This document shows, piece by piece, positions 4,110 to 63,355 of a stretch of 64,000 nucleotides of DNA. The stretch comes from a bacterium (GTDB lineage: Bacteria; Verrucomicrobiota; Verrucomicrobiia; Limisphaerales; RI-55): assembly GCA_016124235.1 (NCBI GenBank), contig WGOC01000008.1:21783-85782 (forward strand), given 5' to 3'. How positions within the stretch are numbered: the stretch's first letter is position 1; every line of letters begins with the position of its first letter. Made by a program: the position numbers and the translations under genes. The notes beneath the pieces were generated by a model. It ran no database searches, had not been told where the DNA came from, and saw only the letters and a list, made by a program, of their open reading frames with translations.

Positions 4110-7100
4110 CTATTCGGGTCGCGTGATCATTTCCCAATCGGGCCGCGCGCGTAGAGGTGCGAATCGGTTCTCGGTGGCCAGGTCCTTGCGCAAATCCTTG
4201 GCGGCGGAATTCGTCTTGAGGCGTCGATCACTGAGCACCACCGACTGGCGCAGGCTCTTCGCTGCCAGATCGAGTTTGCCGAGCGACGACTGCATCGCCG
4301 CAAGGTCGTACCACGCCTCCGGACTTTCGGGACTCACCTGCGTCAACCGGAGCAACGCCCGCTCCATGAGCGGCACATTGCGGAGTTGCTGCGCGAAGAT
4401 CGCCGCCTGCAACACGGCTTCGTGCGTCACGTTCGTTTGCGCCAGCAACGTGTCCAGCACCGCAAATGCGTCATTGCTGCGTTGCAGTTGCGCGTAAGCC
4501 TCGGCGAGATGGAATGCGCTCGTGATGTTGGCCTTGTCCTTGTCGAAGGTCGCCGCGAGCGAGCTGACCTGTTTCTGGACTTCAGTCAGCGTGCTTTCAT
4601 TTTGTTGGTACTTGTCGATCTGGTCGTGCAGGTAGCGGAACTGATCGTTGTTGGGATCGAGTTCCAGCGCCGTCTCAGTGATGAGCCGCGCATCCGCCAG
4701 CCGCCCCGGGATGTTGAGTAACAGGCTCGCATACTTGAACACGGCCTCGGGTGAATACGGGCAAAAGGCAAAGGATTGTTTCCAGGCAAACTCCGCTTCC
4801 CGGGTCAGGCGCGCGCGTTGGGCTTCCGTCTTCGGGAGGTAATCGGAAGGCGTTGGCACACCGGTCAACAAACCAAGGCGCCACAAGTAAATCCCCGCGA
4901 TCGCGCCCCGCAGCTTTGAAAACGACTTCTGCGCCTGATCGTCACGAATGAATTTGGGATCGCCCTTGAACCCGGTGTAATCGCGGCGCACGTACACTTT
5001 CTGCACGAATTCGCAGATCTCCTTCACGCTGGTGTCTTCCTTGATCCAGTTGCCGATCAACCGATCCGAATAATCTGTCCAGAAATGCCGGTCGCGTTGA
5101 AAATCGTCCTCGGTCAATTCCGGCACGTTCTGCCGGTTGATCTTCATGATGATACCGTATGGTGTGAGATGCGGAAACATCCAGTCCAGCGGGAAGCTTT
5201 CCTCGACGTAGAATTCGTTCGTCGGGTTGTGATCGAAAATGGTCTTCGCGAGGATGCCGTTGATCGCCATGACGGACACCTGACCGGCCACCTGAATGCG
5301 GTCGTGACCATCCCCGGCCGGCACGATGTCGACAATTTCGCCGGGTCGCAGTTGGTTCAACTTTTTGCGCCGGGCCGCGTCCTGGAGATAAACTTCAAAA
5401 CTGTCCGCGCTGTCCTGCGGTGTGGGCGTGTAGATTTCGTTGGGCGGATAAACCCCCTCGGCCCGTCGGCGGGCTTCGATCTTGGCACCGAGATCGGTGA
5501 AGAAATGATCGGCCGCGCTCAGCAAAAGAACCTTCGACAGGGTTTTGTCGCCAGCGATCTTCCATTGATCGGCCGCGGGAAGGGAACGTTCCCGATCAGA
5601 AAGCAGCAACGCCTGGAAGAACGGCGGATCCTGCTGCGTGCTGCGATCGTACTGCGCGCGGATGTAGCTGAGGTAGGTGTGATCGGCCAACGCGTTTTGC
5701 GTGATGATGTAGACATCGCGACGATCAAAATTCGGATCACGACGCTGTGTCGGCTTGATGAAGCTTTCGCAGAAGATCATGTAGGTCGGGCAAAACCGGC
5801 CCGGGTCCGTGCCGCCAAAGAGGATCGCGCTCTTCGCCATTTCCGGATACACCAGTTTGGCGGACTTCGGGTCGGCCAGCAGTTGCTTACGTTCCTGGGG
5901 ATCGTAACTGAGTTTGCCATCCGGCGCGGTGAAGGGCGGCGTGAACATGTCGTGACCGAACCACCAGCCAAACAAATGGCCGCGTTGTTCATTGTCCGAC
6001 CAGTGGGCCATCACCGAGTAAAGTGGCGTGATCGCCACCAAGCCGAGGAACACGCCCAAATGCACACGCTCCCGACTCACCAGTACGACCAGCGTGATCG
6101 CGACCATTGAAGCCAGGCCGAAGTACGCGTTGAACCGATCGAGGGGATACGCGGTGTTCATCATCACCCAGGCCACGCCGTACAGGGCGATTGCCGACAT
6201 GATCGCGCCGCCATAAAGCAGCCAGTCACGGTATTCGCGATATGCGTTTTGGAGAATGCCGGCAATCAGCGCGAGGCCGTACCCGGCAAACATTGCGATT
6301 GTGACGTGCGACGCCGTGAAGAAGACGCGCGTCAGATCATGGCTTTGTTTGTCGGAGCCCGGGTTCAACAAATAAATCAGCAGCACTGACAGACATAAAT
6401 AAATGGCTGACTGGCCAATGATCCACGCGCGTTCGCGGTTGCGCATGCGCATCAGAAAGACAAACGGCAGCAGCGCGATCAGGAGATAAACCGGGTTGAA
6501 TTCCTCGATCGCTCCGTCGACCAGCATCCAGCATTGATCGGCAAATTTGGCGACGCTGTCGGTGGGACTGGTCTTTTCGTATTGGCCGCGCGTAAACGCG
6601 TGAATAAAACCCTCGACGGTGCGCGGGTATCCCCAGTTCATCGGCGGGTTCGTCATCGAGGCGATCGGCATGTAGAGGTAAAAACTCGTGCCGATGATAA
6701 ACGTGACGCCACACAAGATCGGAACGAGCCAATCGCGGAACGTCTTCCAGGTCTGGCGCAGCAGATAAACGCTGGCGCCGACCAAACCGCAGCCCAACGT
6801 AAACCAGACAAAGTAACCACCGCTGGACGACACCACTTCGCCCTTGAGCGCGAAGATGGAGAAGAACAGATAGATCAACAGGCCGTACAGGACCCAATCA
6901 CGGAACAGCTCGTAAACCGGCTTGGGGTTCTTGACGAGCAGGTAGATATACGCCGCGGCCGAGAGCAAACCGACCACATGGAAAATGATCAAAACGGGGA
7001 TGTTGCCCTCGAACAAAACGACGATTCCGGAAGATCGTAAAATGACGCCGACCAGATACGCCACCACGTTGCCCAGAATCAGATCACGGCCGAGCCTCGG

Positions 7101-54721: not shown

Positions 54722-56320
54722 TCAGCGGATGACCTGCCAGCTCAGCCCAAACTTCAGCAGATACTTCCGCAATCGATCCGCGTCGTTATTGTCCTTCCGC
54801 TTTTCCCGGGTGACCGCGTAAAGCTTGCGCCCGGCGTCGGAAAGCGAACCGGATTCTCGACAGACGCGAATGACAAATTCCAGTTGCGCGCGATCAAACA
54901 GATCGAGCTGCGCCAGCCGATCGGGCCCAATAAGCTTTGGCAATTGCTCCGGAACATCGCTCCCGCTCGGACTCGCTCCCCAAGTCGAACGCAGGCGTTT
55001 GATCTCCTCGTCCACGGCATCCACACCGATCCGCTTCGATTCCGCAAGCGTTGCCATCCGGCAAACGGCGGCGTTCAGGTCGCGGAAGTTACCGGTCCAT
55101 TGCGCAGCCGGCGACGTCGCAAATTCCAAAAATCGTTCGCGGGCTTCCTTGTTGAACGTCACGTGCGCGCCGGTCTGGCGGGTGAATTGATCCAGCTCGT
55201 AATCGAGATTCGGTTCGATGTCCTCGACGCGTTCCCGCAGTGCCGGCAATTTAAAAGTCCAGAGGTTGATGCGCGCAAGCAGGTCATCGCGGAATTTGCC
55301 GGCGCGCACAGCGTTGTGAAGATCGCGATTCGTGCCGGCGATCAGCTGAAAATCGCTCACCACTTCCGAATCCGCACCGACCGGGAAGAACCGTTTCTCC
55401 TCAATCGCCCGCAGCAACATCGCCTGTTCGTCCGGACCGAGCTCGCCGATTTCATCCAGAAACAACACGCCGCCGTTCGCGGCGAGAAGATGACCCTTAC
55501 GATTCACCGCCGCGCCAGTGAAAGCGCCTTTCACGTGACCGAACAACGCGCTACTCGCCGCGTCGCCACGGATCGTCGCGCAATTCACTTCCACGAAAGC
55601 GCCCTTAAGCTGATGTCGCGCCTTTTTCAATTCGTGGATGCGTCGCGCGAGCTGGGATTTGCCGGCGCCCGTTGGACCCATCAACAGCATCGGCGCGCGC
55701 GAGTGGATGGCCACGCTTTCGATCTGCTCGATCAATTTGTTGAAGCTTTTGTTCCGCGTCGCGATACCGGATTTGAGAAACGTCAACGCCTCGGCGGCTT
55801 CGTCTTCAAATCGAGTGACCAGTTTGTCGTAGCGCGACAGGTCGAGATCGATCACCGCATAACGACCCGGTCCGGATGACTCCTTGCGTTTCGGTGGTGC
55901 GGTCTGGACCAGGCGCGCGGGGAAATGACGCGACTCGGTCAGGAGGAAGAGACAGATCTGCTGCACGTGCGAGCCGGTCGTGATGTGGACCAGATAATCC
56001 TCCTCGTCGGGTTCGAACGGATAGCTGCGCGCGAAAGTGTGGAGCTTGCCGAACACTTCCTCGAAATCCCACGGATCCTCAAACGCGATCTCGCGCAGGT
56101 TTACATCCGTCTCAGGCGACACGCTGCGAATGTCGGCGGCGACCGTTTCCGCCAACGGACGAAACTTGGGCTCAACGATCAACTCGAAGCGATCGATTCG
56201 AAGATCGGCGTGTTGAAACAACGAAACCGTCGGCCGCCAATGTTCCCATCGCCGCGCACCGTCGCCGCGGTCGAGGACGGAACCGAGCAAGCCAAGGGCG
56301 ACTGTGGGGCGATTGTTCAT
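54722..56320 (-). CDS. rtcR: Sigma-54-dependent activator RtcR
   Basis: The start is the ATG at 56318-56320 (MNNRPTVALGLLGSVLDRG), which overlaps the upstream gene's stop as ATGA. The N-terminal domain (1-185) is the RtcR CARF-type sensor, including YLVHITTGSHVQQICLFLL. The AAA+ domain has Walker A GPTGAGKS (215-222), the sigma-54 contact loop GAFTGA (265-270) and Walker B VLFLDE (285-290). A helix-turn-helix closes the protein. In Escherichia and Salmonella RtcR turns on the rsr/rtcBA operon in response to RNA damage signals. Here a GG-N10-GC promoter precedes rsr on the opposite strand. Confidence 0.95.
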   Translation of the reverse strand: MNNRPTVALGLLGSVLDRGDGARRWEHWRPTVSLFQHADLRIDRFELIVEPKFRPLAETVAADIRSVSPETDVNLREIAFEDPWDFEEVFGKLHTFARSYPFEPDEEDYLVHITTGSHVQQICLFLLTESRHFPARLVQTAPPKRKESSGPGRYAVIDLDLSRYDKLVTRFEDEAAEALTFLKSGIATRNKSFNKLIEQIESVAIHSRAPMLLMGPTGAGKSQLARRIHELKKARHQLKGAFVEVNCATIRGDAASSALFGHVKGAFTGAAVNRKGHLLAANGGVLFLDEIGELGPDEQAMLLRAIEEKRFFPVGADSEVVSDFQLIAGTNRDLHNAVRAGKFRDDLLARINLWTFKLPALRERVEDIEPNLDYELDQFTRQTGAHVTFNKEARERFLEFATSPAAQWTGNFRDLNAAVCRMATLAESKRIGVDAVDEEIKRLRSTWGASPSGSDVPEQLPKLIGPDRLAQLDLFDRAQLEFVIRVCRESGSLSDAGRKLYAVTREKRKDNNDADRLRKYLLKFGLSWQVIR

Positions 56321-57717
56321 TGCTCGTCGCCTTTGTTTAACCGCGCTTTCGCGGCCTTTTGGACGTGTTCTTCTTCCGTCCCATCCCGCGAAAGCTCCTC
56401 CAGTCTGGTCCGGCATTGTGGATCGTTGAGGGCAACAAACTGACAAGCGAGCTCGCGATCGCCCGATTCACAATCCCACAAGCACTCGCGACTGTATCGT
56501 TGTATAAAGTCTTGAGGACTGCAGATCGACATCGCTTGGGCGGACCTCTTCCTGGCGTACGAATAGCGGCACTCCACAAACGCGGTTTCCAACTCCGGAA
56601 CCAAGCCGAAGTTGGGAAGGCGCTGAAATGCCTCGAGCAAGGAACAAAGCCGATACAAATTCTTGAAATCGTCTTGGAAACATTCGCGGATGGCGGTCTG
56701 GAGCAGAGGCACATCTTCGACATTGGCTTGATTCTTTAGAATCTCCTCTGCAATCCATCGCTCCCATCGGTCCGTTGACTTGAGCCAGTTTCGTCCAAGT
56801 TGGTAAACCGCATTTAATGGAAGCGCCGCAACGGCATGTCGGCAATGTCCACGAAGCCAACGCGGCTTTTCCGGACAGACTTTCCAAAACGCCAGCAGCG
56901 GCTCGAAGAATTCGGCCTGCGCAAGAAGTTCTAAACCGGCGAGTGCGACGCCTGCCACGAAGGGGCGTTCCGGAGATAGGTTTTCCAACAGAACCTTCGC
57001 GTCAGCAGGCTGGACTTTCGCTTTGATTGCCCTTCTAAATAGCCAGACATTCTTGTCGTTGGCTGTGGCCAATAATTCCGAAACTGAGAGATCTGTACCA
57101 CCGGCTTCTCGTTGTTCCCGCTGGACCAGCAGCCGTCGATTTCGATCCCGTTCAATCAACGTCGCTATCGTTGGATTGCTCTTTCCCCAAGAGATCCAAG
57201 CGGGGTTGTCATCGTTAAACCAACCCAAGGCGTTCTCAAGCAGATTGGCATTGGGGAATAGCGAACAAATAACCTTATCTAGGCCGTTCCACAACGTCGG
57301 GTCAGCGCTGGCACCAAGTTCACGAACCGCGTCGGCCCAACTCGAGCCCCATTCGATGTAGCCGCGAAGTATTTTGCCTGCATCGCTGCTCCCGCGACGG
57401 GCAAGGGAACCCAGAACCTCAATAGTGAGCAACGTGATCCAGCAATTCTGTTTAGGATCGTCGTGCGTCGCCAAATGGTGTTCGAGCGCGTCAAGCGGCA
57501 AGCCAAGCTGGTGGGCGAGCGAAGCATAGTATTCAGTCCGCTGCTCGACTTGCGAATCAATCCGTGGATCGCACGTGATGCAATCGATCAACAACCGGTG
57601 CGCTTCGTCCCGTGGCAGTTCGAGTGCAGCGAGATAGCCAGCGCCTCGGCCACGTTGCAATTGGCCATGAACGGAGCCAGCCGGTGCGTGATGAAATGTT
57701 TTCGGATCAATGGACAC
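56317..57717 (-). CDS. HEAT-like helical protein coupled to rtcR
   Basis: This 466-residue, mainly helical protein has repeats of Leu/Ala/Trp-rich helices (WITLLTIEVLGSLARRG, RPFVAGVALAGLELLAQAEF, WERWIAEEILKNQA), resembling HEAT/armadillo superhelices. It shows no catalytic motif I can see. Its TGA overlaps the rtcR ATG, so the two are translated together, and its start is 198 bases from rsr on the opposite strand. The position implies a part in the RNA-repair response, perhaps modulating RtcR or binding RNA or Ro60. I know no named family. Confidence 0.75.
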   Translation of the reverse strand: MSIDPKTFHHAPAGSVHGQLQRGRGAGYLAALELPRDEAHRLLIDCITCDPRIDSQVEQRTEYYASLAHQLGLPLDALEHHLATHDDPKQNCWITLLTIEVLGSLARRGSSDAGKILRGYIEWGSSWADAVRELGASADPTLWNGLDKVICSLFPNANLLENALGWFNDDNPAWISWGKSNPTIATLIERDRNRRLLVQREQREAGGTDLSVSELLATANDKNVWLFRRAIKAKVQPADAKVLLENLSPERPFVAGVALAGLELLAQAEFFEPLLAFWKVCPEKPRWLRGHCRHAVAALPLNAVYQLGRNWLKSTDRWERWIAEEILKNQANVEDVPLLQTAIRECFQDDFKNLYRLCSLLEAFQRLPNFGLVPELETAFVECRYSYARKRSAQAMSICSPQDFIQRYSRECLWDCESGDRELACQFVALNDPQCRTRLEELSRDGTEEEHVQKAAKARLNKGDEQ

Positions 57718-57863: not shown

Positions 57864-57880
57864 TGGCACCGATCCAGCAA
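57864..57880 (+). promoter_or_regulatory. Sigma-54 promoter of the rsr RNA-repair operon
   Basis: TGGCAC then, after 7 bases, GCAA gives the strict GG-N10-GC spacing: GG at 57865-57866 and GC at 57877-57878. Transcription should start near 57890, 26 bases before the rsr ATG. The AT-rich DNA upstream (about 57718-57860) should hold the RtcR enhancer sites, which I cannot pinpoint. Confidence 0.82.
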
Positions 57881-57915: not shown

Positions 57916-59484
57916 ATGGCGAACAAAAATCTCTTCCAAACCTTCTGGGGAAAACTTCTGCCGCAGGCGAACGCGGTGAACGAGGCCGGGGGCCGCGCGT
58001 ATGATCTCGGCCCGAAGCACGCGCTTGCTCAATACGCGGCGACTGGTTGCTTGAACGGAACGTTCTACGCCGACGCCGCGACCCAGCTCGAGAAGGTGCT
58101 GGCGCTCTGCGACCAGGTGGAGCCCGCGTTCATCGCGAAGACCGCCGCGTATTGCCGCGAGCAAAGTTTCATGAAGGACATGCCGGCGCTGCTCTGCGCG
58201 GCCCTCGCCAAACGCGATGTCGCGTTGCTCGAGCGGGTGTTCGATCGCGTGATCGACAACGGCAAGATGCTCCGCAACTTCGTCCAGATCGTCCGCTCGG
58301 GCGTGACGGGTCGGAAGTCGCTGGGTTCGGCGCCGAAGCGGCTCGTGCGGCAGTGGTTTGAATCGCGGTCGCCGGATCAGGTGTTCCGCGCGTCGATCGG
58401 TCAATCGCCGTCGTTCGCGGACATTTTGAAGATGGTTCACCCGAAACCGGCGACGTCCGAGCGCGAAGCACTCTACGGCTGGATGATTGGTCGCGCGCAC
58501 AAGGCGGATGCGTTGCCGCAACGCGTGCAGGCGTTCGAAGCGTTCAAACGCGGTGATTCGCCGGTGGTGCCGGACGTGCCGTTCCAGATGTTGACGGCGT
58601 TGACGCTGGACCGCGCCGCATGGGTGGAGATCGCCCGCAACGCGCCGTGGCAAATGACGCGGATGAATCTGAACACGTTCGCGCGGCACGGTGTGTTCGA
58701 TGATGCGCGGCTCACGGACTTGGTCGCGAACCGTCTGCGCGATGCGGAATTGATCCGCAAGGCACGGGCGTTTCCGTATCAGCTCATGGCGGCATTCATG
58801 AACATCGGTTCCGGTATGCCGAAGGCGATCGCGAACGCGCTGCAGGACGCGATGGAAATCGCGATCCGCAATGTGCCGAAGCTGCCGGGCCGGATCGTGG
58901 TTTGCCCGGACGTGTCGGGATCGATGCATTCGTCGGTGACCGGTTTCCGAGCCGGGTCGACCTCGAAGGTTCGATGCGTGGAGGTGGCGGCACTCGTCGC
59001 AGCTGCGTTCCTCCGGCAGAACCCGGACACCGAGGTGTTGCCGTTCGAGAGCGACGTGGTCCCGGTGCGGTTGAACTCGCGTGACTCGGTGATGACGAAC
59101 GCGCAGAAGCTCGCGAGTTTGCCGTGCGGTGGAACGAATTGTTCCGCGCCGTTGCGGTTGCTCGCGGATACGCAGTCGGTGGTGGATCTCGTGATCTTCG
59201 TCTCGGACAACGAGTCGTGGATCGATACGCCGCGGCACGGTTACTTCGGTGGAAGCGCGACGGAAACCATGAAGCAATGGTCGCGCGTGAAGTCGCGCAA
59301 TCCGCGGGCCCGGATGGTCTGTGTGGACATCCAGCCTTACGCGACCGCGCAAGCGGCCGAGCGCGAGGACATCGTGAACATCGGCGGATTCTCCGACCAG
59401 GTGTTCGAGTTGATCTCGCTGTTCGCGAAAGGCGAACTCAACGCCGACCATTGGGTTGGCGTGATCGAATCAACGACGCTCTGA
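57916..59484 (+). CDS. rsr: Ro60-family (TROVE domain) Y-RNA-binding protein
   Basis: This 522-residue Ro60 orthologue binds Y RNAs and misfolded RNA ends and assists RNA turnover. The TROVE HEAT ring (about 10-320) is followed by a von Willebrand A domain with an intact MIDAS: D332-x-S334-x-S336 (DVSGSM), GGTNCS and VSDNESW. A strong ribosome site (GAAAGG, 7 bases before ATG) follows the sigma-54 promoter. Four Y-RNA genes and rtcB lie downstream on the same strand, the arrangement of rsr-yrl-rtcB operons. Confidence 0.96.
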   Translation: MANKNLFQTFWGKLLPQANAVNEAGGRAYDLGPKHALAQYAATGCLNGTFYADAATQLEKVLALCDQVEPAFIAKTAAYCREQSFMKDMPALLCAALAKRDVALLERVFDRVIDNGKMLRNFVQIVRSGVTGRKSLGSAPKRLVRQWFESRSPDQVFRASIGQSPSFADILKMVHPKPATSEREALYGWMIGRAHKADALPQRVQAFEAFKRGDSPVVPDVPFQMLTALTLDRAAWVEIARNAPWQMTRMNLNTFARHGVFDDARLTDLVANRLRDAELIRKARAFPYQLMAAFMNIGSGMPKAIANALQDAMEIAIRNVPKLPGRIVVCPDVSGSMHSSVTGFRAGSTSKVRCVEVAALVAAAFLRQNPDTEVLPFESDVVPVRLNSRDSVMTNAQKLASLPCGGTNCSAPLRLLADTQSVVDLVIFVSDNESWIDTPRHGYFGGSATETMKQWSRVKSRNPRARMVCVDIQPYATAQAAEREDIVNIGGFSDQVFELISLFAKGELNADHWVGVIESTTL

Positions 59485-59551: not shown

Positions 59552-59555
59552 ATTT

Positions 59556-59616
59556 GGTAGGGCGAAGGTCCACCTGAGCCATGGTCGAGAAAGGTTGGCG
59601 GGAGCCTCGCCCCACC
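59556..59616. repeat. Dispersed imperfect palindrome, copy 2
   Basis: It begins GGTAGGGCGAAGGTCC and ends GCCTCGCCCCACC. It is related to copies at 22342-22409 and 60421-60483, and sits just before the Y-RNA array. Confidence 0.78.
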
Positions 59617-59648: not shown

Positions 59649-59780
59649 CAGCGGCGGGAATGCCCGCAGGACTACATGGTAGAGCGCTCCCGGGAAACCG
59701 GGAGAGGCCCGGGTTCAAGACCCGGTTCCGCAATCGCGGAATAGCCCAGTATCGTCCTGCCAACATTTGTCCCGTCGCTG
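59649..59780 (+). ncRNA. Y RNA 1 (YrlA-like, divergent tRNA-like module)
   Basis: The outer stem of 11 bp pairs 59649-59659 with 59770-59780 (one G-T). An internal loop follows (ATGCCC against CAACATTTG), then a 7-bp inner stem GCAGGAC/GTCCTGC and the shared TACAT. The module has an added GAAA-capped hairpin, then a T arm (CCGGG TTCAAGA CCCGG), a short acceptor hairpin TTCCGC-AATC-GCGGAA, the TA dinucleotide, and a degenerate D arm (GCCCAGTATC, no closing strand). T-before-D order is that of the YrlA tRNA mimic. It lies downstream of rsr. Confidence 0.82.
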
Positions 59781-59788
59781 GCGAAAAT

Positions 59789-59853
59789 GGTAGTAGCCGA
59801 CGTGAGGAGGCTCTGTTCAATTTGGAATGAGCCTCGTTACCTCGGCGACTACC
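59789..59853 (+). ncRNA. Long hairpin RNA between Y RNAs 1 and 2
   Basis: An imperfect helix of about 24 base pairs is formed by GGTAGTAGCCGA with TCGGCGACTACC (one A-G mismatch), a GTGA/TTAC segment and GAGGCTC/GAGCCTC, around a 15-base loop. It carries no T arm, D arm or ATGC/TTG internal loop. It could be a processing signal, a stripped Y RNA or a dispersed repeat; the sequence alone does not decide. Confidence 0.45.
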
Positions 59854-59865
59854 TCAAACAACTTT

Positions 59866-59995
59866 TGTGACGAATGCTGATGGAACTACATCTCAAGAAT
59901 GCGTGGTCGTGGGTTCGAGTCCCGCCCCTGGCACCATCGATGCCAGGGTAGCTCAGTGGTAGAGCACGAACCGTTTCATCGATTTTGTCGTCACA
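59866..59995 (+). ncRNA. Y RNA 2 (YrlA-like, with CCA in the acceptor loop)
   Basis: The outer stem TGTGACGA/TCGTCACA is perfect (8 bp). The internal loop is ATGC against ATTTTG, and the inner stem TGATGGAAC/GTTTCATCG has 9 bp with two G-T pairs. TACAT follows, then the T arm (GTGGG TTCGAGT CCCGC) and the acceptor helix CCCTGGC/GCCAGGG. The loop between acceptor strands reads ACCATCGAT, that is, a discriminator A plus CCA and a short linker. TA and a canonical D arm (GCTC AGTGGTA GAGC) complete it. No anticodon arm exists; the stem replaces it. Confidence 0.88.
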
Positions 59996-60003
59996 GATCC
60001 TTT

Positions 60004-60134
60004 CAGACCGAATGCCCGACGGGATTACATCATTAACACATGAAAGGTTGCCGGTTCGAATCCGGCCCCCGGCACCAATGACGTCGGGGTAGCTCAATGG
60101 TAGAGCAACATCTCGTCACCAACTTGTCGGTCTG
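60004..60134 (+). ncRNA. Y RNA 3 (YrlA-like, with CCA in the acceptor loop)
   Basis: The outer stem CAGACCGA/TCGGTCTG is perfect (8 bp). The internal loop is ATGCCC against ACCAACTTG, and the inner stem GACGGGA/TCTCGTC has 7 bp with one G-T. TTACAT and a linker lead to a perfect T arm (GCCGG TTCGAAT CCGGC). The acceptor helix CCCCGGC/GTCGGGG (one G-T) encloses ACCA plus ATGAC. TA and a D arm (GCTC AATGGTA GAGC) follow. It is the most regular of the four units. Confidence 0.88.
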
Positions 60135-60165
60135 GTTAACTTTGAAAAGTCGGAAAAATGGATGA

Positions 60166-60247
60166 GCCACGGATGAAACACAGATTGAGCACTGATCAGA
60201 CACGGCGTGAACCGGAAGACATTTTGAATCCGTGTTCAATCTGTGGC
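60166..60247. repeat. Imperfect inverted repeat between Y RNAs 3 and 4
   Basis: The 21-base arms 60166-60186 and 60227-60247 match at 17 of 21 positions as inverted copies (core CCACGGAT and CACAGATT). A related scrap, CACTGATGAACACCGATTA, occurs at 62708-62726. It looks like an inserted intergenic repeat that separates Y RNA 4 from the rest. Confidence 0.65.
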
Positions 60248-60268
60248 TGGAAATGAATGAGAGAATTT

Positions 60269-60392
60269 GCGGTGAATGCCTGGGGAACTACATGTAAGCC
60301 GTTGGTTGCCGGTTCGAATCCGGCGTCCGGGAAACCGGAGTAGCTCAATTGGATAGAGCAGCGGAGATCGTTTCCTAACACCTTGTCACCGC
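60269..60392 (+). ncRNA. Y RNA 4 (YrlA-like, GAAA-capped acceptor)
   Basis: The outer stem GCGGTGA/TCACCGC is perfect (7 bp). The internal loop is ATGCCT against AACACCTTG, and the inner stem GGGGAAC/GTTTCCT has 7 bp with two G-T pairs. TACAT and a linker lead to the T arm (GCCGG TTCGAAT CCGGC). The acceptor is reduced to TCCGG/CCGGA capped by GAAA, with no CCA. TA and the D arm (GCTC AATTGGATA GAGC) follow. TTTT lies just after the outer stem. Confidence 0.86.
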
Positions 60393-60420
60393 GTTTTGAA
60401 AACTGAATGAACGAATACCT

Positions 60421-60483
60421 GGTAGGGCGAAGGTCCTCCTGAGCCCAAATCAAGATGGGGCTCGGCAGGAGCCTTGCCCTACC
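60421..60483. repeat. Dispersed imperfect palindrome, copy 3
   Basis: It starts GGTAGGGCGAAGGTCC and ends GCCTTGCCCTACC; the inner arms TGAGCCC and GGGCTCG also pair. It lies between Y RNA 4 and the next gene, so the array is bracketed by copies 2 and 3. Confidence 0.8.
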
Positions 60484-60501
60484 AACAGAATTGACTCACC
60501 A

Positions 60502-61299
60502 ATGAAGCAATCGATAGGAGAGTTTCGGTCGACTTTGAAAGCTGCACTTCTAGCAAAGGAGACTGCTGCAAACGTTTCAACAGACAGACTTGGAAGCGAG
60601 GTCGACGCCCTCTACTTGAGGGTCATACTGGCTGGTCTTTCGATAAACCAATTGCTCAAGCCCAGACCAGTGGCTGGAATACGCGCTCCGTCTGTGCCCG
60701 ATCCGGGTTCTATCGCCGCCATAGTCCGCTCAATTGCCGAAGGCTACCTCATGCAACTTATGCTTTCAGAGTCTCGCAATGACCTCGATATGCGCGAACT
60801 GCGATTGCTGTGGTTGGATTGGCATCGTGCAAACGAAATGGAGAGGGCATCAGTCACAACGTCTGCCGGTCCGCAATCTAAGTTACAACTGCAGAAGCTA
60901 AGGGCAAGGATTACCGCTCATCACCGATATTCGTCTATCCCGGAAGATCTGCGAAAGCCGTTTGAAAAAGGGAAGCGACCAAAGAGAGCTACATTTGAAG
61001 AAGTTCGCGAAGCCGCTTCAAAAGCTGGCCTAAACACAGACCGTTTCGAATTCTTCTACCAACTGACTTCAGCACAGGCGCACGCCGAACCTTTTGCCGT
61101 TGATGTTTTCAAATCACAAGATCCGTTCTCAACCAAAGTTACTGGCTATCTATCGCTCCTGTTGAAGGACGCTACGGCGTTCATCGCGTTTTCTACAGTG
61201 CAGCATTTGAAGGAATTTACCGGAGATATCGACATTCTAGGCGGAGCTTTCCGAAAGACACTCCTCACATGGCGCGGCGTGCTTAGCCAGCCTTTCTAA
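60502..61299 (+). CDS. Orphan helical protein in the rtcB operon (DUF5677-like)
   Basis: This 265-residue, mostly helical, soluble protein is encoded 2 bases before rtcB, so it is co-translated with it. AAIVRSIAEGYLMQLML (Arg and Glu on one helix face) and FFYQLTSAQAHAEPFAV (a Ser-His element) recall DUF5677-type, HEPN-like proteins, but this is a weak resemblance. A central basic segment (RKPFEKGKRPKRATFEEVR) could bind RNA. I know no function; a toxin-like or RNA-handling role is only a guess from context. Confidence 0.78.
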   Translation: MKQSIGEFRSTLKAALLAKETAANVSTDRLGSEVDALYLRVILAGLSINQLLKPRPVAGIRAPSVPDPGSIAAIVRSIAEGYLMQLMLSESRNDLDMRELRLLWLDWHRANEMERASVTTSAGPQSKLQLQKLRARITAHHRYSSIPEDLRKPFEKGKRPKRATFEEVREAASKAGLNTDRFEFFYQLTSAQAHAEPFAVDVFKSQDPFSTKVTGYLSLLLKDATAFIAFSTVQHLKEFTGDIDILGGAFRKTLLTWRGVLSQPF

Positions 61300-61301
61300 A
61301 T

Positions 61302-62696
61302 ATGAACACCAAACAACTTCAAAAACTCGGCATCCCGTTGGGGGAGCCGATGCATCGGGCGAAGGATTTCATCGCCGAATACATCCTCAAAGGTGGCGAT
61401 CGCGAGCAGATCGAAAACGTAGTTGCGGCAATTGTCGCTGATCCAGCGGCGCATTTGAATGATCCGATGGGCGGCCCGTTCGCCAAATCGTTGCTCGAAG
61501 GCCGTACGATGGCACGCACGGAACCGGTTCCTTGGAAACAATGGGGCGCCGATCTTGATCCCAACTCAATCGAGCAAATCGAGAACGCCTGCCTGCTTCC
61601 CGTGTCCGTTCGCGCGGCGCTCATGCCGGACGCGCACGTCGGTTATGGCCTCCCGATCGGCGGCGTGCTCGCCACGGAAAATTCGGTCGTGCCGTACGCC
61701 GTCGGGGTTGACATCGCGTGCCGCATGAAACTCACCGTGCTCGATATCCCAGTGGAGGATCTCCAACGCCGCCAAGACTGGTTGCGCGAGGCGATCGAGA
61801 CGGAAACCAAGTTCGGCGTCGGCGCACATTTCAAACGCAGGCGCGCGCATGACGTGATGGACCGCGACTGGTCGGTCAGCAACGTGACGAAGTCGCACAA
61901 GGACAAGGCGTGGTCACAGCTCGGAACGAGCGGCAGCGGAAATCACTTCGTTGAGTTCGGTACGTTTGAGTTGAAGGAAACGGTCAAGGGTCTCGCGCCC
62001 GGCGAGTACGTGGCGTTGCTCAGTCATTCCGGTTCGCGCGGAACGGGCGCCGCCGTGTGCGCGCATTACAGCAAACTCGCCAAACAACGGCATCCGGAAC
62101 TCCCGCGTGAACTTGCGAACCTGGCCTGGCTCGATCTCGATTCCGAGGAGGGCCGCGAGTATTGGGACGCGATGAATCTGATGGGCGAATACGCCGCCGC
62201 CAATCACGCGTGCATCCACCGACATGTGGCGCAACATCTCGGCGTGGACGTTTTGCTCGACGTCGAAAACCACCACAACTTTGCGTGGAAGGAAACGCAC
62301 GTGATCGACGGTCAGAAGCGCGAAGTAGTTGTGCATCGCAAAGGCGCAACGCCGGCCGGTGTGGGTGTGCTCGGGATCATTCCGGGATCGATGGCGTCGC
62401 CGGGATTTCTCGTCCGCGGCAAGGGCAACGCCGCTTCGTTGAACAGCGCCTCGCACGGAGCGGGCCGCGTGATGAGCCGCACGCAGGCAACCAAATCGCT
62501 GAACTGGAAGGACGCCAAACGCTTTCTCAAGGAACGCGATGTGACGTTGATCTCGGCCGGTCTCGACGAGGTACCGATGGTTTACAAAAACATCCACGGC
62601 GTCATGGCCGCGCAGTCCGACCTCGTGGAGATCCTCGGCGAGTTTAACCCGAAGCTCGTAAAAATGGCCCCCGCCGGCGAACGTCCTGAAGACTAA
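61302..62696 (+). CDS. rtcB: RNA-splicing/repair ligase RtcB
   Basis: It joins RNA ends carrying 2',3'-cyclic phosphate or 3'-phosphate to 5'-OH, using GTP and Mn. The 464-residue protein has the metal-site motif GVDIACRM (D137, C140), GTSGSGNHFVE, HSGSRGTG, and the guanylated histidine H385 in SASHGAGRVMSR. It is in the rsr/Y-RNA operon under the sigma-54 promoter. rtcA (the 3'-phosphate cyclase) is not in the window; hen1 sequences follow instead. Confidence 0.97.
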   Translation: MNTKQLQKLGIPLGEPMHRAKDFIAEYILKGGDREQIENVVAAIVADPAAHLNDPMGGPFAKSLLEGRTMARTEPVPWKQWGADLDPNSIEQIENACLLPVSVRAALMPDAHVGYGLPIGGVLATENSVVPYAVGVDIACRMKLTVLDIPVEDLQRRQDWLREAIETETKFGVGAHFKRRRAHDVMDRDWSVSNVTKSHKDKAWSQLGTSGSGNHFVEFGTFELKETVKGLAPGEYVALLSHSGSRGTGAAVCAHYSKLAKQRHPELPRELANLAWLDLDSEEGREYWDAMNLMGEYAAANHACIHRHVAQHLGVDVLLDVENHHNFAWKETHVIDGQKREVVVHRKGATPAGVGVLGIIPGSMASPGFLVRGKGNAASLNSASHGAGRVMSRTQATKSLNWKDAKRFLKERDVTLISAGLDEVPMVYKNIHGVMAAQSDLVEILGEFNPKLVKMAPAGERPED

Positions 62697-62794: not shown

Positions 62795-63355
62795 ATGCTT
62801 CTCACGATTTCCACCACCCATCAGCCGGCGACCGATCTTGGTTACTTGTTGCGCAAGAATCCGGCGCGACCGCAGTCGTTCGAGCTGTCGTTTGGCCGAA
62901 CGCATGTTTTCTACCCGGAAGCGACCGCTGGCACTTGTACGGTAGCGCTGCTCGTCGAGGTCGATCCGGTCGGGTTGGTGCGCAATCGGCGTGGGCCGGC
63001 CGGCGAAGGCGGCGCACTTGAACAGTACGGCAACGATCGACCGTACGCAGCGTCCTCGTTTCTGAGTGTGGCCATCGCGGAGGTGTTTGGCAGCGCGTTG
63101 TCGGGCCGAAGCAAGGAGCGACCGGATCTCGTGGATCAACCGTTGCCGTTGAAGGCGATCCTTCCGGCGGTCCCGTGTCGGGGCGGCGAGGACGTTTTGC
63201 AAAAAATGTTCGCACCTCTTGGTTATCAGGTAACGGCGAAACGGCTGCCCCTGGACGAGAACTTTCCGGATTGGGGCGAAAGCTCGTGTTATCGCGTCGA
63301 GCTAGACGGCGTCCTGCGCCAGCGGGAGCGGGCAATGGGGCGGCACGCGGTATAA
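62795..63355 (+). pseudogene. hen1: Truncated hen1: N-terminal domain only
   Basis: The 186-residue frame starts MLLTISTTHQPATDLGYLLR and continues with FYPEATAGTCTVALLVEVDP, ASSFLSVAIAEVFGSALSGR and DENFPDWGESSCYRVELDG. This is the bacterial Hen1 N-terminal domain, which activates the PNKP ligase. A full Hen1 is about 460 residues and ends in a 2'-O-methyltransferase; here similarity stops after RVELDG and the frame ends 15 residues later. No methyltransferase sequence follows in the next 645 bases. It is either a decayed gene or one cut by an insertion. It lies 98 bases after rtcB. Confidence 0.85.

What the first reader, a model, noticed from the sequence alone, without database searches (positions are those of the whole stretch)
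59649..60392. Four tandem Y-RNA genes with permuted tRNA-like modules between Ro60 and RtcB
Direct reading shows four units of about 130 bases. Each has two helices around an asymmetric internal loop (5' side ATGC plus two bases, 3' side ending TTG), then TACAT, a T arm, an acceptor helix closed by a loop, TA, and a D arm (degenerate in unit 1). The outer helix always ends in GA/TC, so the strand pair reads GAATGC and TTGTC. As I recall, bacterial Y RNAs carry a Ro60-contact motif of the GNCGAA-N-G / UUGNC kind, which fits. T-arm-before-D-arm order is what the YrlA tRNA mimic needs. A four-member array with diverged members, in this lineage, looks undescribed and would be missed or called broken tRNAs by routine annotation.
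Basis: partly seen in the sequence, partly recalled or inferred. Interest (0 to 1): 0.95.

Follow-up and report, generated by a model that had tools for sequence, protein, structure and literature searches.

The report
Y RNA built into tRNA D-loop
Between the genes for the ring protein Ro60 and the RNA-repair ligase RtcB lie four predicted genes for tRNA-like Y RNAs: three resemble the known YrlA type, while the first is predicted to fold as a whole tRNA body, anticodon arm included, that is opened in a different loop (the D-loop) to hold the likely Ro60-binding helix, and matching units are found in genomes from three bacterial phyla.

Summary
Four Y-RNA units lie at 59650-59779, 59864-59997, 60002-60136 and 60266-60395, between Ro60 and RtcB and beside divergent RtcR. 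Units 2-4 are of the YrlA type: a circularly permuted tRNA with the Y helix at the anticodon. Rfam gives them 69.6, 47.0 and 75.5 bits (cut-off 69). Arrays of two to six units are common beside Ro60 (54 of 74 loci), so the array is not the news.

Unit 1 is. Its D arm is not degenerate but split: the 3' half (GGTAGAGC) and an anticodon arm precede the T arm, and the 5' half (TAGCCCAG) follows the closed acceptor stem. The Y helix thus stands in the D-loop. A covariance model of this "class B" finds 28 distinct units (12 used for training) in Verrucomicrobia, Acidobacteria and Planctomycetes. Pairing is 92% (39-45% when slid). The tRNA tertiary pair 15-48 covaries (G-C/A-U), and GG is kept in 28 of 28. 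ARAGORN of 26 de-permuted units tRNAs, and 0 of 28 native ones. Anticodon loops are irregular and acceptor ends closed, so translation is unlikely. I infer Ro60 adaptors that present a tRNA mimic in a second orientation; function is untested, and the main Y-RNA papers could not be read.

The parts
59650..59779 (+). Unit 1, class B Y RNA: Y helix inserted in the D-loop of a four-armed, circularly permuted tRNA body
   Evidence: R1 119.0 bits versus R2 51.1 (in R1's training set); RNAalifold on 12 class B units
59650..59659 (+). Unit 1 outer Y helix, 5' strand (pairs with 59770-59779)
   Evidence: sequence
59666..59672 (+). Unit 1 inner Y helix, 5' strand GCAGGAC (pairs with 59754-59760)
   Evidence: sequence
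59678..59685 (+). Unit 1 D-arm 3' half GGTAGAGC (GG corresponds to tRNA G18 G19)
   Evidence: GG kept in 28 of 28 class B units
59687..59704 (+). Unit 1 anticodon-type stem-loop CTCCCGGGAAACCGGGAG
   Evidence: helix covaries across class B units: 4 of 4 modelled pairs with changes on both sides
59709..59725 (+). Unit 1 T arm
59726..59741 (+). Unit 1 acceptor stem TTCCGC / GCGGAA closed by AATC (no free 3' end, no CCA)
   Evidence: sequence
59742..59749 (+). Unit 1 TA + D-arm 5' half TAGCCCAG (one C-A mismatch in the D stem)
   Evidence: sequence
59754..59760 (+). Unit 1 inner Y helix, 3' strand GTCCTGC
   Evidence: sequence
59770..59779 (+). Unit 1 outer Y helix, 3' strand, begins in the TTGTC motif (59767-59771)
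   Evidence: sequence
59864..59997 (+). Unit 2, YrlA-type (class A)
   Evidence: RF02553 69.6 bits; R2 114.6, R1 44.6 (in R2's training set)
60002..60136 (+). Unit 3, YrlA-type (class A)
   Evidence: RF02553 47.0 bits, below cut-off; R2 110.8, R1 49.8 (in R2's training set)
60266..60395 (+). Unit 4, YrlA-type (class A)
   Evidence: RF02553 75.5 bits; R2 118.1, R1 53.8 (in R2's training set)
57916..59484 (+). Ro60 (Rsr) gene
   Evidence: Pfam vWA_Ro60 1.8e-19 and TROVE 3.4e-6; Rsr structure 2nvo 4.2e-23
61302..62696 (+). RtcB RNA ligase gene
   Evidence: Pfam RtcB 1.8e-85
54722..56446 (-). RtcR sigma-54 activator gene (start codon not settled)
   Evidence: Pfam RtcR 1.4e-80 and Sigma54_activat 1.9e-49
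57864..57879 (+). Candidate sigma-54 promoter TGGCACCGATCCAGCA upstream of Ro60
   Evidence: 0.56 expected by chance in the window; a slightly looser pattern stands within 250 bases upstream of Ro60 in 38 of 78 loci, window included, versus 0.2% of shuffles
60502..61299 (+). DUF5677 gene between the array and RtcB
   Evidence: Pfam 2.8e-6

Best explanation
The locus is predicted to encode four Y RNAs of a likely RtcR-controlled RNA-repair operon, and the first of them most likely is a Ro60 adaptor in which the Y helix opens the D-loop of a complete, circularly permuted tRNA body instead of its anticodon. Shown by sequence and comparison: the order D-loop 3' half, anticodon arm, T arm, closed acceptor stem, D-arm 5' half inside the Y helix; covariation of the helices; the covarying 15-48 pair; conservation next to Ro60 in other genomes. 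Inferred: RtcR, on sensing broken tRNAs, turns on Ro60, the Y RNAs and RtcB together; Ro60 binds the Y helix; units 2-4 hold the tRNA mimic by its anticodon side and leave elbow and acceptor end free, while unit 1 holds it by the outer part of the D-loop and leaves anticodon arm and acceptor end free. One Ro60 ring could thus be linked to tRNA-binding enzymes (nuclease, modifying or repair enzymes) in two orientations. Which enzyme binds is not known.
For: Rfam and gene neighbours. RNAalifold, given no structure, recovers both Y helices, D stem, anticodon arm, T arm and closed acceptor on 12 class B units; 90.4% of cells pair, against 37-46% when slid. The model R1 separates the classes: 16 units at 80.8-124.8 bits (12 trained, 4 not), the next at 62.1, over 99 sources; R2 scores for those 16 are 34.2-59.0. 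Genome-wide search without Ro60 finds 11 of 343 genomes in one phylum (10 outside the training set) and 3 of 347 in another (2 outside it); Ro60 lies in the flank of 9 of those 10 loci, and the tenth ends at a contig end with an RtcB-like stretch on its other side. For 28 units: 34 pairs, 92.3% of cells paired, 31 pairs with changes on both sides against 20.5 in shuffles. Pair 15-48: 21 G-C and 4 A-U of 28 by script, and one more A-U (L168) on reading. De-permuted units called as tRNA: 20 of 26; native 0 of 28; shuffles 0 of 2600. sigma-54 sites: 38 of 78 loci.
Against: No expression, binding or probing data exist here. The D stem hardly varies, so most of its support is conservation: 2 of 4 pairs never vary, and RNAalifold on the 28-sequence MAFFT alignment did not call it. 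The minimum-energy fold of window unit 1 alone does not show the D stem, and that stem has a C-A mismatch. The A6 alignment is fitted to the model. L070 (G-G) and L165 (G-A) break pair 15-48. De-permuted class A units are also called as tRNAs (19 of 23, with 8-base flanks), so that test shows a tRNA body but does not by itself tell the classes apart. Class B is a minority: 13 of 80 named Ro60 loci, 8 of 16 Ro60-bearing genomes of the order, 2 of 27 further Ro60 loci from the class of L024's genome at 71 bits or more (short flanks; one of the two scores exactly as L068 and may be its genome), 2 of 384 sampled genomes of the window's class. Ro60 binding is inferred from the shared GAATGC/TTGTC motif.
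Confidence: 0.72

Rival explanations
1. Unit 1 is a decayed YrlA copy whose D arm has been lost; only units 2-4 matter.
For: RF02553 scores only 27.4 bits; the 5' D half has one mismatch.
Against: 28 class B units, the window's included, with compensatory changes, GG kept in 28 of 28, Ro60 linkage found without using Ro60.
Confidence: 0.05
2. The units are permuted pre-tRNA genes: the Y helix is cut out, RtcB joins the halves and working tRNAs result.
For: RtcB is encoded next door; 20 of 26 de-permuted class B units are called as tRNAs and 8 of these 20 calls name an isotype.
Against: 12 of the 20 calls, the window's among them, name no isotype because the loop gives no three-base anticodon; parsed acceptor stems have 4-9 pairs and are closed, 14 of 26 by a GNRA tetraloop; the ATGC of the Y helix's internal loop is invariant in 28 units, which a discarded spacer would not need.
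Confidence: 0.05
3. Unit 1 is a decoy or sensor for nucleases that cut tRNA anticodon loops: its anticodon arm is bait and its fragments feed RtcR or RtcB.
For: The operon responds to tRNAs broken at the anticodon loop in Salmonella, and competitive inhibition by YrlA was proposed there (PMC7790460, passages); class B carries a full anticodon arm.
Against: Anticodon loops are irregular in class B; fragments of Salmonella YrlA were not detected.
Confidence: 0.15
4. The second orientation has no function of its own: class B is a neutral re-opening of the same circularised tRNA that Ro60 tolerates, and all units do the same job.
For: Both classes keep the same tertiary pair 15-48; most named Ro60 loci scanned have no class B unit (67 of 80).
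Against: The anticodon stem covaries and is kept across three phyla, which drift would not do.
Confidence: 0.25

Closest known systems
YrlA, Rfam RF02553; Salmonella structure 6CU1 (as described in PMC8394870 and PMC11472068, passages seen)
   Same: Y helix with GAATGC/TTGTC, T arm, closed acceptor stem, circular permutation of a tRNA, location beside Ro60 and RtcB; units 2-4 follow this plan.
   Different: In unit 1 the opening lies in the D-loop and an anticodon arm is present; the review's passage lists D, T and acceptor arms for YrlA. RF02553 scores 27.4, below its cut-off.
Salmonella rsr-yrlBA-rtcBA RNA-repair operon under RtcR (PMC7790460, passages)
   Same: RtcR divergent from Ro60, Y RNAs and RtcB; sigma-54-type site upstream of Ro60.
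   Different: Four Y RNAs instead of two, a DUF5677 gene inserted; RtcA was not seen among the six window ORFs tested.
Permuted tRNA genes of archaea and algae (recalled, no call)
   Same: A tRNA body with its 3' part encoded before its 5' part.
   Different: Here the acceptor ends are fused by a loop, a conserved Y helix fills the gap, and anticodon loops are irregular.

Membership tests
YrlA (RF02553), units 2-4 | Score at or above the gathering cut-off 69 | tested here: inconclusive
   69.6 and 75.5 pass, unit 3 (47.0) does not
YrlA (RF02553), units 2-4 | T arm, closed acceptor stem, D arm in that order, Y helix at the anticodon side | tested here: met
   alignments; R2 110.8-118.1 bits (training members)
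YrlA (RF02553), unit 1 | Score at or above the gathering cut-off 69 | tested here: not met
   27.4 bits; at gathering threshold none of the class B units of L019, L025, L032, L034 is listed either
YrlA (RF02553), unit 1 | Y helix at the anticodon side, undivided D arm | tested here: not met
   Y helix in the D-loop, anticodon arm present
Bacterial Y RNAs in the wide sense, unit 1 | Encoded beside a Ro60 gene, in homologues too | tested here: met
   window; 9 of 10 loci found without Ro60 in one phylum
Bacterial Y RNAs in the wide sense, unit 1 | Bound by Ro60 | not testable with these tools
   needs pull-down
Functional tRNA, unit 1 | Free 3' end with CCA on a 7-pair acceptor stem | tested here: not met
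   six pairs closed by AATC
Functional tRNA, unit 1 | Anticodon loop with a three-base anticodon | tested here: not met
   ARAGORN reads a four-base 'gaaa' on the de-permuted unit and gives no isotype
RtcR-RtcB RNA-repair operon | RtcR, RtcB and a sigma-54 site | tested here: met
   Pfam; site pattern (by chance alone 0.56 expected in the window); RtcR and RtcB in the same places in 5 of 5 chosen class B loci
RtcR-RtcB RNA-repair operon | RtcA present | not tested
   not among the six ORFs scanned; no genome-wide search was made

The most novel reading that the evidence does not exclude
Bacteria build Ro60 adaptors by grafting one Ro60-binding helix into different loops of a tRNA body: the anticodon loop (YrlA), the D-loop (window unit 1 and 27 relatives) and the acceptor stem (two Acidobacteria). 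A single stress operon thereby supplies tRNA mimics that face Ro60 in different orientations, one of them with an anticodon arm, and in Acidobacteria these sit among a whole spare set of tRNA genes.
Probability: 0.6. Interest if true: 0.85.

Novelty: new variant of a known kind. Interest (0 to 1): 0.74.

Why it matters
As far as the passages seen tell, bacterial Y RNAs mimic three arms of a tRNA. A conserved second way to open the same fold, with the anticodon arm kept, suggests that the Ro60-binding helix is a movable module and makes an open question testable: which tRNA-binding enzymes does Ro60 recruit, and does orientation decide which? The RNA lies in an operon of a kind that answers to broken tRNAs, and neither the Rfam YrlA cut-off nor ARAGORN calls the window's unit, so such units are likely missed in genome annotation.

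Tried and rejected
Rejected: (a) unit 1 as a broken YrlA (28 class B units). (b) A normal tRNA at 59942-60074: the Rfam tRNA match joins units 2 and 3 and ARAGORN finds none. (c) Working permuted tRNAs (irregular loops, closed acceptor). (d) Weaker R1 matches to about model positions 28-108 in Acidobacteria: those read are ordinary tRNA genes in arrays. (e) Phage carriage: no match to unit 1 in 50,697 phage records and none to one exact class B pattern in viral contigs. (f) The first de-permutation script failed on T-arm loop length and was replaced. In one search the script misread L168 (it took an earlier AAGCGCGG for the D arm); read by eye it is A15-U48. L165 and L168 could not be de-permuted and are left out of the 26. 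In one search L068 could not be parsed. In one search, 23 of the 24 R2 training units were tried (L097 left out); calls came only with 8-base flanks, none with 0 or 4. (g) Terminator scan near the array: none found.

Literature: searches (Y RNA terms; tRNA arrays) showed no paper on a D-loop-opened Y RNA in their listings; the listings of 31, 66 and 84 were capped (25 of 68, 10 of 179, 8 of 13 papers). The primary Y-RNA papers (PMC4201824, PMC6281776, PMC6047535) are not held, so absence from print is not established.

Full report
What is there. The stretch 59650-60395 holds four units of 130-135 bases on the + strand. Upstream lie Ro60 (57916-59484) and, on the other strand, RtcR (54722-56446); downstream lie a DUF5677 gene (60502-61299) and RtcB (61302-62696). 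The Ro60 protein matches the solved Rsr structure 2nvo at 4.2e-23. RtcR, Ro60, Y RNAs and RtcB are the parts of the RNA-repair operon that in Salmonella is switched on by tRNA fragments (PMC7790460, passages). A sigma-54-like site stands at 57864-57879; alone it is no more than chance (0.56 expected in the window), but a slightly looser pattern occurs within 250 bases upstream of Ro60 in 38 of 78 loci, the window included, against 0.2% of shuffled upstream stretches. RtcR and RtcB flank the array in five of five further class B loci chosen for the test (L019, L025, L032, L034, L046).

Units 2, 3 and 4. Rfam RF02553 gives 69.6, 47.0 and 75.5 bits against a cut-off of 69. They follow the known plan, called class A here: Y helix, T arm, closed acceptor stem, D arm, Y helix. 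A tRNA is closed into a circle at its acceptor end and opened at its anticodon. Passages of a review (PMC8394870) and of the ARTEMIS paper (PMC11472068) describe the Salmonella structure 6CU1 as a tRNA mimic and a circular permutation. Across 97 class A units found by a descriptor in the window and the 80 named loci, the tRNA tertiary pair 15-48 is G-C in 63, A-U in 30, A-C in 3 and A-A in 1. Relatedness is not corrected for, but the two-way change supports a tRNA-like core.

Unit 1. RF02553 gives 27.4 bits. Read through, the order is: outer and inner Y helix; TACAT; GGTAGAGC; a stem-loop CTCCCGGGAAACCGGGAG; T arm; acceptor stem TTCCGC-AATC-GCGGAA; TAGCCCAG; inner and outer Y helix. GGTAGAGC is the 3' half of a D arm and TAGCCCAG its 5' half. 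Rotated, this is a full tRNA body in natural order with the Y helix standing in the D-loop, between the bases that correspond to 15 and 18. From recall, positions 16-17 point to solvent in tRNA, which would make this a tolerant site.

Homologues. A scan of named genomes with Ro60 gave 80 loci, the best of 254 relatives. Twelve units with the same plan were aligned. RNAalifold, given no structure, predicted both Y helices, the D stem, anticodon arm, T arm and closed acceptor: 34 pairs, 24 with a change on both sides. Control: 90.4% of cells pair, 37-46% when partners are slid by 1-3 columns; 24 pairs with double changes against 14.9 +- 2.1 in shuffles. A covariance model R1 from these 12 was run over 99 sources; repeats of the same loci and some small fragments among those then held were left out. 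Sixteen matches score 80.8-124.8 bits, four of them not used for training (L112, L110, L042, L044); the next is 62.1. A class A model R2 gives those 16 only 34.2-59.0 bits, while window units 2-4 get 110.8-118.1 with R2 and 44.6-53.8 with R1 (each window unit was in the training set of its own class). Thirteen of the 80 named loci carry class B.

Test on genomes not chosen by Ro60. R1 at E <= 1e-10 found 11 of 343 genomes in the phylum of L046's genome (titled Phycisphaerae), ten of them outside the training set, and 3 of 347 in the phylum of L021's genome (titled Acidobacteria), two of them outside it. Of the ten, nine have Ro60 in the 1.5-kb flank; the tenth (L156) ends at a contig end and shows an RtcB-like stretch on the other side. 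R1 exceeds R2 in all twelve: 64.7-100.6 against 32.9-60.6 bits. These surveys used strict filters and scored only some 8-9 candidates per genome, so they are lower bounds. In the window's own class R1 at E <= 1e-12 found 2 of 384 sampled genomes. In its order 16 of 320 genomes have Ro60, and eight of these show class B (several loci are cut by contig ends). Among 27 further Ro60 loci from the class of L024's genome (of 30 fetched; three repeats left out) two reach 71 bits: L153 at 102.1, the same score as L068 and perhaps its genome, and L130 at 71.3, which is the genome of L168. The window's genome, which is incomplete, has no R1 match at E <= 0.001 outside this array.

Twenty-eight units together. 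On a MAFFT alignment RNAalifold pairs, 28 with double changes, but not the D stem, which hardly varies. On the model-fitted alignment 92.3% of cells pair (39-45% slid), 31 of 34 pairs have double changes (20.5 in shuffles), and the D stem pairs in 97.3% of cells, with two of four pairs showing a compensated change. The GG of the D-loop is kept in 28 of 28. Pair 15-48 reads G-C in 21, A-U in 4, G-G in 1 (L070), G-A in 1 (L165) and G-U in 1 (L168) by script; L168 was misread and is A-U on inspection. A G15-G48 pair is known from E. coli tRNA-Cys (PMC9976931, passages).

De-permutation. Put back in tRNA order, 20 of 26 class B units that could be parsed are called as tRNAs by ARAGORN; 0 of 28 are in their native order, and 0 of 2600 shuffles. 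An earlier run gave 12 of 15, with 3 of 800 for other rotation points. Class A units with 8-base flanks are also called, 19 of 23 (none with 0 or 4 bases), because part of the anticodon stem remains. The test shows a tRNA body in both classes; the order of the parts tells them apart.

Not a working tRNA. Of the 26 parsed, acceptor stems have 4-9 pairs and end in closed loops, 14 of them GNRA tetraloops; of the 20 tRNA name no isotype and 8 do. The arm is kept, a uniform anticodon loop is not.

How it most likely works. Shown: sequence plan, conservation, neighbourhood. Inferred: RtcR control, Ro60 binding, partner proteins. In class A, Ro60 would sit at the anticodon side; in class B, at the D-loop, leaving anticodon arm and acceptor end free. 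An operon that answers to tRNAs cut in the anticodon loop may need both. For YrlA, binding of PNPase and modification by DusA and TruB are reported (PMC8394870, passages). Whether class B recruits the same enzymes is open.

Known or new. Y RNAs beside Ro60 and RtcB are known; arrays of several units are common (2-6 units in 54 of 74 loci). A Y RNA opened in the D-loop with an anticodon arm was not in the listings of seven literature searches (three of them capped), but the primary Y-RNA papers were not held. I rate it a new variant of a known kind.

Noticed in passing
L053:548-4862; L061:78-4928; L063:536-4864; L064:121-4933; L094:510-4892: Acidobacteria carry large tRNA arrays directly upstream of Ro60: 27-33 ARAGORN tRNA calls per locus covering 19-20 amino acids (L061's count of 33 includes one call inside a Y unit at 6872-6941). 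17 of 80 named Ro60 loci have at least 8 tRNA calls. It looks like a spare tRNA set tied to RNA repair. Anabaena has a stress-induced 26-gene tRNA operon whose repressor also controls rtcB (PMC10272220, abstract start and passages).
   Followed up: partly
L021:3037-3171, L030:3420-3560, L044:2022-2151, L068:4263-4397, L098:2275-2411, L167:1501-1644: In these six Acidobacteria loci the class B unit lies inside the tRNA array; in five of the six the next tRNA call is tRNA-His.
   Followed up: partly
L024:4480-4584; L029:6842-6946: A third topology: D arm, anticodon arm and T arm in natural order inside GAATGC/TTGTC, the inner Y helix standing in for the acceptor stem; ARAGORN calls tRNA-Leu(taa) and tRNA-Ser(tga) there. 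Only these two genomes among the loci scanned (L019-L098 and L126-L155).
   Followed up: partly
L025:6870-6975, L034:3954-4060, L020:1899-2004, L061:6860-6986: Shorter Y units with T arm and a closed hairpin but no D-arm 5' half; some keep a GG or an anticodon-like stem, L061 with an Ile-type GAT loop.
   Followed up: no
L025 about 6620-6690; L023:6593-6643; L020:1812-1875: Minimal Y units with no tRNA part, in these loci the first unit after Ro60.
   Followed up: no
window 59555-59616 and 60410-60490: The Y array is flanked on both sides by copies of a dispersed inverted-repeat element; 14 matches, the query itself included, in the incomplete genome.
   Followed up: partly
window 62795-63355: An ORF with the N-terminal part of the Hen1_L domain (profile positions 1-175 of 242) lies just after RtcB, near the contig end: a second RNA-repair gene, possibly incomplete.
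   Followed up: no
window 56317-57717 (-): A 466-residue ORF between RtcR and Ro60 without any Pfam match at 0.001.
   Followed up: no
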